From positions 1 through 40,481 of the forward strand of contig JAGWUF010000021.1 of NCBI GenBank assembly GCA_028868545.1: a stretch of 40,481 nucleotides of DNA, read 5' to 3'. The DNA is from Lysobacteraceae bacterium (GTDB lineage: Bacteria > Pseudomonadota > Gammaproteobacteria > Xanthomonadales > Xanthomonadaceae). Below the pieces are notes generated by a model, which had not been told where the DNA came from, did no database searches, and worked only from the letters and a program-made list of their open reading frames with translations. Positions 37,105 through 40,481 of the stretch are shown here, piece by piece (within the stretch, counting starts at the first letter, position 1; the number at the start of each line of letters is the position of its first letter). A program made the position numbers and the translations under genes.

Positions 37105-37422
37105 ATGTTGGGCATCAAGCTCTCCGACCCGATGAAGCCCTATTCCGCAGCCGACCTGAGGACGGGGTTGCGCTTGGTCGTCTCCAACTCCCAGCCGACG
37201 AATAGCAGCCGCATGCAGCCTGCTGCTTCGACGACTGCGAGTAGGGCACTGTTGGGCTCCTTTCCGGATGGAGAACGTACCCATGCGCTGACGCAAGTTG
37301 TCGGTCGCATGCTCGCCGTGGGGCTTGAGCCGGAAGAGGTGGCGCAGTTGGCTCAGGATTGGAATGCGCGCCAAAGCCCTCCGCTCGATCCGGATAAGGT
37401 GCTCAGTGTCAACGCCGACTGA
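37105..37422 (+). pseudogene. 5' part of PriCT-helicase gene, interrupted by IS21
   Basis: Now encodes 105 residues. Residues about 50-101 (SFPDGERTHALTQVVGRMLA ... QLAQDWNARQSPPLDPDKVL) are a primase C-terminal (PriCT) domain that breaks off before its last helix. The native coding part ends at 37406; the final VNAD and stop come from the IS21 end. Joining base 37406 to 39361 continues in frame as VLS-TVESLAKT, which is how PriCT domains end, so the two parts were one gene. ATG 37105, ribosome site GGAGG at 37095-37099. Confidence 0.88.
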
Positions 37423-37434
37423 AATCTGACCCAC
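37407..37434 (+). repeat. IS21 terminal inverted repeat, left
   Basis: Begins TGTCAACGCCGAC and ends CTGACCCAC. An inner repeat with TGAAAACTGACCCA follows at about 37455-37470. Preceded by target copy CTCAG. Confidence 0.9.
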
Positions 37435-37479
37435 TTTGGCCCGTTATCGCCGATTGAAAACTGACCCATCCGGGCCCGT

Positions 37480-38256
37480 TCAAGTGGTGCTCTTCGGTCG
37501 GACCGTTCCGGCCTTTCTCTTGTCTTTGAGCCGGTAGCTGTCGCCGCTGATCTGCACGATATGGGCGTGGTGCAGCAGCCGATCCAGCAGGGCGGCGGTC
37601 AGCGTGGCGTCGTCGGCCAGGGCACCAGCCCACTGCGGGAACGGCAGGTTGCTGGTCAGGATCATGCTGCCGCGCTCGTAGCGTTTGGCGACGACGTTGA
37701 AGAACAGGCTGGCTTCTTCTCGGCCGAACGGCAGGTAGCCCAGCTCGTCGACGATCAGTAGGCGTGGGCCGAGCACGGCGCGATTGAAGTACTCGCGTAG
37801 CCGGCCTTGGCTGTTGGCCGACGCCAACTGCAACATCAGGTCGGCCGCCGACAGGAACCGCACCTTGATGCCGGCATGGATGGCCCGCATCGCCAAGGCG
37901 ATGGCCAAGTGCGTCTTGCCCACGCCCGACGGACCCAGCAGCACCACGTTCTCGGCCCGCTCGATGAAGGCCAGGCTGGCCAACTCCATCACCTGGGGCT
38001 TGGAGACGCCCGCGGCGAAGCTGAAGTCGAACGCCTCCAGTGTCTTGACCGAAGGCAGCGTGGCCAGCTTCTGCAAGGTCTGCCGGGTACGCTCGGTACG
38101 GGCGGCCATCTCCGCCTGCAGGGCCTGCTCCAGGAACTCGCCGTAGCTGGTCTGGCTGGCGACCGCATGCTGGGCCAAGGCCGGCCACTGGCTGGCGATC
38201 GCCGGCAGGCGCAACTGCTCGCACAGCGCGTGCAGTCTGTCGTGCTGCAGGTTCAT
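37480..38256 (-). CDS. istB: IS21 helper ATPase IstB
   Basis: A 258-aa AAA+ protein that aids target selection by IstA. Walker A is LLGPSGVGKTHLAIALA, Walker B LLIVDELGYLPFG, sensor region ILTSNLPFPQW, and the C-terminal LLDRLLHHAHIVQISGDSYRL is typical. ATG 38256 overlaps the istA stop (ATGA). Confidence 0.96.
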   Translation of the reverse strand: MNLQHDRLHALCEQLRLPAIASQWPALAQHAVASQTSYGEFLEQALQAEMAARTERTRQTLQKLATLPSVKTLEAFDFSFAAGVSKPQVMELASLAFIERAENVVLLGPSGVGKTHLAIALAMRAIHAGIKVRFLSAADLMLQLASANSQGRLREYFNRAVLGPRLLIVDELGYLPFGREEASLFFNVVAKRYERGSMILTSNLPFPQWAGALADDATLTAALLDRLLHHAHIVQISGDSYRLKDKRKAGTVRPKSTT

Positions 38257-39266
38257 GCCATCGCCTCCATCAGTTCGCCGTAGACCGACAGCGGGTGCTG
38301 GATCGACGGGAATGGCAGCACCCGGGCGGTCGGCGGTGGGGGCAGCATCCGCGTCATCACCGGCTCCGGCAGCGGCTGCAGGCGCTGGCGCTCGTGCACC
38401 AGCAAGTCGCAGGGCCGCGCCTGGGTGGTGCCGTGGATGCGGCGGTTGGCCACCTGGTCCAGCCAGCGGTATACCTCGCGGTTGGCGGTGTGCGCGTCCA
38501 GCACCAGTCCGCCGCTGCGCAGAGTGGCCGCCAGTGGGACCACGAAGCTGCCCTTGAGGTAGCCGTTGAACCGCTCCACCTTGCCCTTGGTGCGGGCCCG
38601 GTAGGGGCGGCACACGCGTGGGGTGAAGGCGCATTGCTCGGCCAGCGCCAACATCTGCGGGTTCCAGCGATGCTGGCCGGGGCCGTACACGTCTCGATCC
38701 AGCAGCACCGGCTTGGCGTTGTCGAACAGCACGTGCTGCGGCACGCCGCCGAAGTAGTCGAACGCTCCAACCAGCCCGGCCTCCCAGGCCGGGAAGCTCT
38801 CGTCGTCACCAAAGCGCACGTAGGTCGTGCGGCTGTACCCGAGCGTGGCCACGAAGGCGACCAGCCGGTCGCGGCCGCGACGCACCGTGGTGAAGTCCGC
38901 CTGCATCTGCTCGCCCGGCGCCGTCTCGAAACGCACTACCGGGTCGGCAGGAGCGCGGCGCAGCGGTGCCATGAACGCCTTGAGCTGGCTGAGGCCGCCG
39001 GCATAGCCCTGCTCGGCCAGCTCGCGCAGCAGCACCGTGGCCGGGATCACATCCGGTTGGGCCGCGGCCAGTCGTGTCCGGACGTAGTCCTCATACGGCG
39101 CCAACTTGGTCTGTTGTCTGGGCCGTGGGGTGTACTGCGCCTGGGCGCCTCGCAAGTACCGCCGAACCGTGTTGCGCGACACACCCAAATCCCGGGCGAT
39201 CTCCCGGATCCCCTTGCCCTGGCGGGCCATCACTCTGACTTCCACTGCTTCCTCCTGGGTCAACAT
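38253..39266 (-). CDS. istA: IS21 transposase IstA
   Basis: A 337-aa DDE transposase. The N-terminal HTH is GIREIARDLGVSRNTVRRYL. The catalytic core has Asp in GEQMQADFTTVRRG, Asp in VLFDNAKPVLLD and Glu in TKGKVERFNGYLKGSF, ending with the Mu-type C-terminal region. ATG 39266 is preceded by GGAG about nine bases away; a TTG at 39281 would add five residues. Intact. Confidence 0.96.
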   Translation of the reverse strand: MLTQEEAVEVRVMARQGKGIREIARDLGVSRNTVRRYLRGAQAQYTPRPRQQTKLAPYEDYVRTRLAAAQPDVIPATVLLRELAEQGYAGGLSQLKAFMAPLRRAPADPVVRFETAPGEQMQADFTTVRRGRDRLVAFVATLGYSRTTYVRFGDDESFPAWEAGLVGAFDYFGGVPQHVLFDNAKPVLLDRDVYGPGQHRWNPQMLALAEQCAFTPRVCRPYRARTKGKVERFNGYLKGSFVVPLAATLRSGGLVLDAHTANREVYRWLDQVANRRIHGTTQARPCDLLVHERQRLQPLPEPVMTRMLPPPPTARVLPFPSIQHPLSVYGELMEAMA

Positions 39267-39327
39267 CCAGGCGGTCTCCAAAAGACCGCCATCCTCGCCC
39301 GGGTGGGTCAGTTTTACATCGGCGCGG

Positions 39328-39355
39328 GTGGGTCAGTTTTACGTCGGCGGTGACA
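39328..39355 (-). repeat. IS21 terminal inverted repeat, right
   Basis: Minus strand begins TGTCACCGCCGAC and ends CTGACCCAC; partner of 37407-37434. An inner copy of GTAAAACTGACCCACCC lies at about 39302-39318. Followed by target copy CTCAG (39356-39360). Confidence 0.9.
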
Positions 39356-39361
39356 CTCAGC

Positions 39362-40481
39362 ACCGTTGAAAGCCTCGCAAAGACTGATGCACGCAACCAT
39401 CCGGAGCGCCAAGAGAGGGGTAGCCACGAGGGGCCGCTCACGCCGCTGTTTGACCTCAGTGAGGCTGATATCGGCATGCTGCTCCGGACCAGCCCACAGC
39501 CTAGGCGCTGGTTGCTGCAGGACATGCTGCCGCTTGGCGTCGTCGGCATGATCGTCGCGCCGGGTGGAACGGGAAAGAGCCAGTTTGTTCTGCAGCTCGG
39601 AGTCAGCGTCGCGACGGGAATCCCACTGTGCGAACTGTGGAAGGTTGGTGAGCAGGGGACGGCGCTTCTTCTCTTGGCAGAAGACGAGAGGGACGAGGTG
39701 CATCGGCGCTTGGATCGTATCGTTAAGGAACTCGCACCGATCAATCCGTCGATGGCGAATGATCTGAGCCAGCGGCTGCTCATCAAGTCGATGACGGCGC
39801 GAGACAACCTCATGACTCGGAAGAAACCGCATGGCACTGTGGCGACGACTGGCTATGTGGATCGTCTCTTGCTTACGGTCGCTGGTATTCCCGATCTGAA
39901 GCTGATCGTGATCGATCCGGCTTCACGCTTTCGTGGCGGCGATGAGAACTCCGCTGACGACGTGACGCGCTTTGTCGAAGAAATGGAACGGATTCGGCAG
40001 GCAACGGGAGCGACCGTTCTGGTTTGCCATCACGCCAATAAGGCCAGCATGAATGAGTCCTCTGGTGTGCGCGGTCAGGCTGCGACGCGCGGATCCAGCG
40101 CCATGACTGACGGCGTTCGCTGGCAGCTCAATCTCACCACACCGCAGCAGAAGAGCTTGGTTGGGCTGGACGCGACCAAGCGCTATCTCCGTGCGGAACT
40201 CGCCAAGAGCAATTATGGCCCGCCAGTTGATCCCGAGATTCTGACCCGCAAGCAGGGTGGCTACCTGACCAGCGCCCGTACTGGTAGCGTTTCGGTGACG
40301 CTGGACGACCGCGTTCTGCAACTGATCCGCACGGAGCAAGCAGCTTCTCGCAGCTACTCCGCCAGTATGTTCGAAAAGACCTTTGGTGGCGAGGATGGCC
40401 AACTCGCAGTGGGCTTCAACTCAGTGGCGAAAGCGATCAAGCGCCTCATTGACGCCGGACGAGTGCGCAAGGAGAAGGGGA
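39362..40481 (+). pseudogene. 3' part of PriCT-helicase gene: RepA-like AAA ATPase (runs off the window)
   Basis: The frame that continues the gene broken at 37406 is open from 39362 to the window end (373 codons, no stop). After the last PriCT helix (TVESLAKT) and a linker comes a RecA-fold hexameric helicase domain of the RepA/AAA_25 type. Walker A is VAPGGTGKSQFVLQLG, followed by LLLLAEDERDEVHRRL, Walker B LKLIVIDPASRF, the TVLVCHHANK motif and RGSSAMTDGVRW. A wHTH-like C-terminal part begins (SFNSVAKAIKRLIDAGRVRK; first residue G in the sequence). Without a promoter and start it is cut from its primase partner. An internal ATG at 39476, 25 codons before the Walker A, could still give a bare ATPase if transcribed from the IS. 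Confidence 0.85.

What the first reader, a model, noticed from the sequence alone, without database searches (positions are those of the whole stretch)
37105..40481. IS21 cleanly splits a PriCT-helicase gene; on-paper excision restores one frame
The IS21 ends (TGTCA...) and the 5-bp duplication CTCAG define the insertion to the base. Removing 37407-39355 and one CTCAG joins the codons so that the PriCT domain reads on as VLS-TVESLAKT and into a RepA-like ATPase without a stop for 373 codons. Primase catalytic gene, PriCT and helicase thus formed a compact replication module. The insertion separates priming from unwinding and should block autonomous replication of the excised island.
Basis: partly seen in the sequence, partly recalled or inferred. 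Interest (0 to 1): 0.75.

Follow-up and report, generated by a model that had tools for sequence, protein, structure and literature searches.

The report
Jumping element splits island replication gene
A complete, ordinary transposable element of the IS21 kind has landed inside a DNA-copying gene of a mobile island; the one less ordinary point is that this gene joins a primase accessory domain to the helicase, while the primase core has its own gene next door.

Summary
Observation confirmed. A complete IS21-family element (37407-39355) lies between two copies of CTCAG inside a + strand gene. Both flanks are in the same phase; the left carries most of a PriCT_1 domain, the right its probable last helix and a RepA-type helicase open to the contig end.

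Two corrections. Priming was already separate from unwinding: the primase core (36558-37103) is its own gene, and PriCT-helicase starts one base after its stop, at ATG 37105, with a strong ribosome site. The insertion parts PriCT from helicase. And "blocks replication" is inference: the helicase core is whole, and two same-genus genomes with the nearest primases have no match to this helicase.

The insertion is ordinary; the gene layout is less so. Of 10 other PriCT_1 frames in 299 genomes of the order, 9 hold a primase-type domain, one below cut-off, and 38 of 38 primase relatives, some near-duplicates, run on past where this one stops. PriCT apart from the primase and joined to the helicase was seen only here, in one damaged copy.

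The parts
32594..32638 (-). 3' part of a tRNA gene (like tRNA-Val), probable attachment-site remnant at the island edge
   Evidence: 87% over 45 bases to the tRNA-Val(gac) at G000:C80; ARAGORN finds no whole tRNA here
32834..34081 (+). tyrosine integrase of the island
   Evidence: Pfam Phage_integrase E 2.1e-34, Arm-DNA-bind_3 E 3.9e-17
34078..34749 (+). 223-aa protein, no family found
   Evidence: no Pfam or PHROG match at the cut-offs used
34889..36116 (-). complete IS3-family element; 4-bp duplication GACT at 34885-34888 and 36117-36120; ends 4 bases before ATG 36121
   Evidence: 13-base perfect inverted ends; IS3 transposase models; duplication read
36121..36357 (+). excisionase-like HTH_17 protein
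   Evidence: HTH_17 E 1.6e-8 and TIGR01764 E 3.4e-6, just under its cut-off; phrog_66
36350..36565 (+). 71-aa protein, no family found, small gene before the primase
   Evidence: strongest ribosome site of the 8 starts tested, -12.7 kcal/mol; no match
36558..37103 (+). primase catalytic core gene (AEP, RepB_primase); stops in the loop after the conserved Arg-hydrophobic pair
   Evidence: Pfam E 1.6e-14; alignments; ribosome site in the best 0.6% of 629 + strand ATGs
37094..37107 (+). ribosome site GGGAGG and start ATG 37105, one base after the primase stop TGA 37101-37103
   Evidence: -10.2 kcal/mol, best 0.8% of 629 + strand ATGs
37105..37406 (+). left part of the split gene: N-terminal segment and most of PriCT_1; the frame runs 16 bases into the IS and stops at 37420-37422
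   Evidence: PriCT_1 E 9.4e-8; phrog_695 E 5.6e-4
37402..37406 (.). target duplication, left copy CTCAG
37407..39355 (-). complete IS21-family element, 1949 bp
   Evidence: inverted ends, two direct repeats at each end; single full copy found in the assembly; 82% full-length relative in G080
37480..38256 (-). istB, helper ATPase
   Evidence: NF038214 and PF01695
38253..39281 (-). istA, DDE transposase
   Evidence: NF033546 E 3.1e-88
39356..39360 (.). target duplication, right copy CTCAG
39356..40481 (+). right part of the split gene: probable last helix of PriCT, RepA-type AAA_25 helicase, start of a C-terminal region; cut by the contig end
   Evidence: AAA_25 E 8.1e-43; best solved relative RSF1010 RepA 1g8y E 8.1e-26; for the PriCT helix

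Best explanation
An integrated island next to a tRNA remnant carries a replication operon: excisionase-like gene, small gene, primase core, and a gene for a PriCT_1 domain fused to a RepA-type hexameric helicase, translated from its own start directly behind the primase stop. A complete IS21-family element has transposed into the codons of the last part of PriCT, duplicating 5 bp (shown; that it is the last helix is inferred from alignments). As it stands the upstream frame yields a 105-residue PriCT product with a short IS-coded tail, and the helicase frame loses its normal start (shown from sequence). Transcription from the operon must cross 1.9 kb of antisense istAB, so helicase synthesis is probably low or restarted internally (inferred). 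The island is therefore probably impaired in its own replication after excision, but not proven dead (inferred).
For: Boundaries, duplication and phase. Families of the pieces. Two direct repeats within each IS end; IstA needs both in vitro, and 5-bp direct repeats delimit IS21 insertions (PMC10122671, passages). A relative of the same 1949-bp length in G080 has its own duplication TGTCGG. PriCT continues in the right flank: frame 0 is the best of three frames for 9 of 11 relatives; in L193 and L187 no other position of the protein scores as high (0 of 288, 0 of 396), in L188 1 of 380 and in L182 4 of 626. PriCT_1 directly followed by AAA_25 exists elsewhere: L182, 638 aa, Prim-Pol then PriCT_1 then AAA_25. 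Own start for PriCT-helicase.
Against: No uninterrupted relative of exactly this layout was found. The nearest helicase relatives do not show PriCT_1 in the helicase frame (L065, L067, L068 by Pfam; L066 by eye), and PriCT normally sits with the primase. In one search seven of 11 relatives gave a score of 1 or less, among them L186 (poor left alignment) and L191 (another frame better); frame 2 contains stops, which makes it a soft control. Loss of replication was not measured; the helicase core is whole. The gene's 3' end is missing.
Confidence: 0.85

Rival explanations
1. The island still replicates: the helicase is made alone from an internal start (for example ATG 39476, just before the region that matches RSF1010 RepA), or the host helicase serves, so the IS is nearly neutral.
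For: The RSF1010 RepA chain of 279 residues matches residues 46-308 of the right frame; ATG 39476 is residue 43, ribosome site -6.0 kcal/mol, in the best 8.8% of ATG, GTG and TTG codons. G001 and G019, with the nearest primases, have no match to this helicase at E 0.001 in their whole genomes.
Against: No promoter-like site was found near the right end of the IS and terminator-like sites on the + strand lie inside it (consensus scans only); istAB runs antisense; PriCT would lose its last part.
Confidence: 0.3
2. The primase and PriCT-helicase frames are one fused gene broken by an older frameshift, so the module was already decaying before the IS arrived.
For: 38 of 38 primase relatives, several near-duplicates, run on in frame past this point by at least 36 residues; the segment PYSAADL after the start resembles the flange end of fused relatives (by eye).
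Against: Start 37105 has a ribosome site in the best 0.8% of 629 + strand ATGs, like the primase's own start; stop and start are one base apart; by my hand count against L033 alone the region holds about 28 bases more, which a single-base slip does not explain; conserved residues are kept in both products.
Confidence: 0.35
3. Assembly artefact: an IS repeat joined two unrelated loci.
For: One contig of a 117-contig assembly; the contig ends inside the gene.
Against: Matching 5-bp duplication, matching phase and PriCT continuing across the junction; only one full copy of this IS found in the assembly.
Confidence: 0.03

Closest known systems
IS21 family insertion sequences (IS21, IS5376)
   Same: istA and istB, inverted ends, two direct repeats at each end, 5-bp duplication
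   Different: Nothing of note seen; a named close member was not sought in ISfinder. Best plasmid match 73% over 99% (Eleftheria terrae)
RSF1010 RepA hexameric helicase (1g8y, 1nlf, 1olo)
   Same: Helicase core, residues 46-308 of the right frame, E 8.1e-26
   Different: The RepA chain has 279 residues; here the helicase has PriCT in front and a C-terminal extension
PrimPol-PV1 primases, PrimQH-type architecture (PMC5862659, passages seen)
   Same: Primase, then PriCT, then RepA-type ATPase on an integrated mobile element; conserved Arg after motif III
   Different: [quoted passage not shown] here the primase core is separate and PriCT rides on the helicase
RSF1010 RepB' primase (3h20, 3h25)
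   Same: Weak sequence match, E 0.05; primase followed by PriCT-1 per PMC5862659
   Different: No PriCT in the same polypeptide here

Membership tests
IS21 family | istA transposase and istB helper ATPase | tested here: met
   NF033546 E 3.1e-88; NF038214 E 1e-87
IS21 family | Terminal inverted repeats with two direct repeats at each end | tested here: met
   37408-37442 and 37443-37477; 39297-39321 and 39322-39346
IS21 family | 5-bp target duplication | tested here: met
   CTCAG on both sides; 5 bp per PMC10122671 (passages)
RepB_primase / AEP | Pfam RepB_primase over its cut-off | tested here: met
   54.7 bits against 24.3
PrimPol-PV1 supergroup | Conserved Arg-hydrophobic pair (motif IV) after motif III | tested here: met
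   Window has TRM where relatives have SRV, SRI or TRI; 3 of 11 aligned relatives (L125, L130, L136) lack the Arg
PrimQH family | Clustering with PrimQH, Gln or His in motif II | not tested
   A conserved His is present (H118; that it is the motif II residue is my reading); no clustering was run
PrimQH-type architecture | Primase, PriCT, ATPase and WH in one protein | tested here: not met
   Primase core in a separate frame; WH at the C-end only guessed, gene cut by the contig end
PriCT_1 | Pfam PriCT_1 over its cut-off | tested here: met
   32 bits against 21.1 on the left frame alone
RepA-type hexameric helicase (AAA_25) | Walker A, Walker B, HH and Arg motifs (motif names recalled) | tested here: met
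   G72 G73 K76 S77, D189, H227 H228, R257 invariant in the window and three relatives
Autonomously replicating integrative element | Excision and replication of the circular form | not testable with these tools
   No reads, no culture

The most novel reading that the evidence does not exclude
Before the insertion this was a two-subunit replicase in which the primase core stands alone and the PriL-like PriCT domain is carried by the helicase, coupling primer handling to unwinding in a way not seen in the relatives examined: a bacterial mobile-element counterpart of the separate small and large primase subunits, with the large-subunit part riding on the motor. The IS then cut it between the two roles.
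Probability: 0.5. Interest if true: 0.4.

Novelty: new variant of a known kind. Interest (0 to 1): 0.25.

Why it matters
The insertion itself is routine mobile-element wear. The layout under it would matter a little more: PriCT is described as most commonly fused to the primase of mobile elements (PMC5862659, passage). A natural arrangement with PriCT on the helicase would suggest that PriCT need only be at the fork, not on the primase chain, and would let its role be tested by separating the parts. It rests on one damaged copy.

Tried and rejected
Close relatives of the whole module: none found. Helicase piece: 31 of 198 relatives at E 0.001 (own included; the best other match by E-value has 33% identity); at E 1e-20, 6 of 369 class genomes and 17 of 398 phylum genomes, own included, best other 46%. 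Primase piece: 5 of 198, own included. One genome-contig scan gave 26 loci of 78 pattern matches, best 46%. Of five viral scans three found no relative (16, 80, 81). Plasmid and phage records gave only matches under 60%.

Pfam on 45 helicase- or primase-bearing frames: AAA_25 in 42, PriCT_1 in 2; the tool does not name those two.

Palindromic target: the flanks GGTGCTCAG and CTCAGCACC mirror each other. Arms of 6 around one base occur at 27 of 40468 window positions; the one other copy with a clear duplication (G080) shows only 3-base arms by eye, and PMC10122671 (passage) reports no clear or strong target specificity for IS21, so no target rule is claimed.

A programmed +1 frameshift at GGC TGA C was considered and set aside: the slip pairs badly (recalled reasoning, no test) and a strong start lies one base on.

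Pfam found no PriCT_1 in L036, L123, L126, L127, L130 at E 0.1, so 'fused' there means primase and AAA_25 in one frame.

Structure prediction never ran: the machine was busy.

Full report
What is there. The window is a whole contig, C106 of a 2.65 Mb, 117-contig assembly, and its last base is the contig end. Bases 1 to about 32500 look chromosomal (for example UvrC, a succinate dehydrogenase-type flavoprotein, a fused GTPase/APS kinase). None of the 20 frames I put to Pfam is a drug-resistance gene; a Lactamase_B match lies in a competence protein; other window frames were not scanned. At 32594-32638 lies a 3' tRNA remnant, followed by a tyrosine integrase, an unknown gene, an IS3 element, an excisionase-like gene, a 71-aa gene, a primase core, and the split gene.

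The insertion. The IS21 element runs 37407-39355 with CTCAG on both sides. Its ends hold two direct repeats each, which IstA needs in vitro, and IS21 insertions are delimited by 5-bp repeats (PMC10122671, passages seen). It is the only full copy found in the assembly. A relative of the same 1949 bp and 82% identity sits in G080 with its own duplication TGTCGG; G071 holds left-end fragments of 85% and 87%, and the G159 copy (72%) has no clear duplication. So the element and its ends are real and ordinary.

The split gene, without joining it. CTC of the duplication is in frame on both flanks. The left frame alone matches PriCT_1 positions 3-54 of 67. I aligned the left piece to 11 PriCT proteins and then asked whether the first right-flank residues fit the next positions. 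Frame 0 was the best of three frames in 9 of 11; scores were 25, 14, 14 and 10 in L193, L187, L188 and L182, and 1 or less in the other seven, including L186, whose left alignment was poor, and L191, where another frame scored higher; frame 2 contains stops. In L193 and L187 no other position of the protein scored as high (0 of 288 and 0 of 396). The insertion therefore probably lies in the last helix of PriCT (inference from these alignments). The right piece matches AAA_25 (E 8.1e-43) and RSF1010 RepA (E 8.1e-26).

Gene starts. The primase stops at 37101-37103 and the next frame starts at ATG 37105. The hybridisation energy with the 16S tail is -10.2 kcal/mol there, in the best 0.8% of 629 + strand ATGs of the window, against -10.3 for the primase start 36558 and +0.7 for the ORF start 37087. 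Primase and PriCT-helicase are thus best read as two coupled genes. The primase ends shortly after the Arg-hydrophobic pair that PMC5862659 calls motif IV (passages; alignment; 3 of the 11 relatives there lack the Arg).

Relatives. The primase has 4 relatives in 198 genomes besides its own and 34 in viral contigs, several of which are near-duplicates. In all 38 the primase frame runs at least 36 residues past the end of the match. In L036, L123, L126, L127 and L130 primase and AAA_25 share one frame. PriCT_1 occurs in 11 of 299 genomes of the order, this one included. Of the other 10, 9 have a primase-type domain in the same frame: RepB_primase in L183, L184 (the same place as L035), L185, L186, L188; Prim-Pol in L182, L187; Replicase in L192; a weak, sub-cut-off DNA_primase_S in L190. 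The tenth, L191, has PriCT_1 with D5_N and no recognised primase in frame. L182 has Prim-Pol, PriCT_1 and AAA_25 together, the only other PriCT_1 to AAA_25 order I could name. The nearest helicase relatives show AAA_25 without PriCT_1 in that frame (L065, L067, L068 by Pfam; L066 by eye).

Function. Shown: the coding frame is broken; the left product would end four whole IS-coded residues after the insertion point; conserved residues of primase and helicase are unchanged in alignments (which of them are catalytic is recalled). Inferred: helicase synthesis is reduced, since istAB is antisense, only one promoter-like site was found in 36100-39500 (at 36855; 0.5 expected by chance) and none near the right IS end, and terminator-like sites lie inside the IS (5 in the stretch, 1.8 expected, consensus scans only). 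An internal ATG at 39476 could still give a helicase of RSF1010 RepA type. G001 and G019, same genus, with the nearest primases, have no match to this helicase at E 0.001, so this helicase may not be needed by every such element. Loss of replication is likely but unproven.

Second insertion. The IS3 element ends four bases before the ATG of the excisionase-like gene and has a GACT duplication. It will have displaced that gene's upstream control region, so excision may also be affected (inference).

Print. From search listings only (one search listed 15 of 894 papers, one search listed 3 of 3) I saw no title or abstract on PriCT carried by a RepA helicase apart from the primase; PMC5862659 says PriCT is most commonly fused to the primase (passage). 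The library holds open-licence papers only, so this is a weak absence.

Verdict. Sound observation, ordinary insertion, overstated consequence; a mildly interesting domain layout that needs an intact second example.

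Noticed in passing
34889-36116: A complete IS3-family element with GACT duplication ends 4 bases before the start of the excisionase-like gene at 36121; the island has taken two IS hits, one at its control region and one in its replication gene.
   Followed up: partly
37398-37406 and 39356-39364: The IS21 target flanks GGTGCTCAG and CTCAGCACC are near mirror images, 6-base arms around one base; 27 of 40468 window positions have such arms.
   Followed up: partly
32594-32638: tRNA 3' remnant whose best match elsewhere in the assembly is tRNA-Val(gac) at G000:C80, only 87% over 45 bases; no identical intact tRNA was found, so the other island edge seems unassembled.
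   Followed up: partly
L191, 811-2637: A PriCT_1 to D5_N helicase frame without a recognised primase in the same frame (G997:C92); PriCT_1 covers only profile positions 30-66.
   Followed up: no
G000:C57:941-1279: A second, distant AAA_25-type match (29%, E 1.4e-4) in a 549-aa frame of the same assembly.
   Followed up: no
27501-27995: Four tRNA genes in a row, Gly, Cys, Gly, Leu; the two Gly(gcc) genes have the same Rfam score.
   Followed up: no
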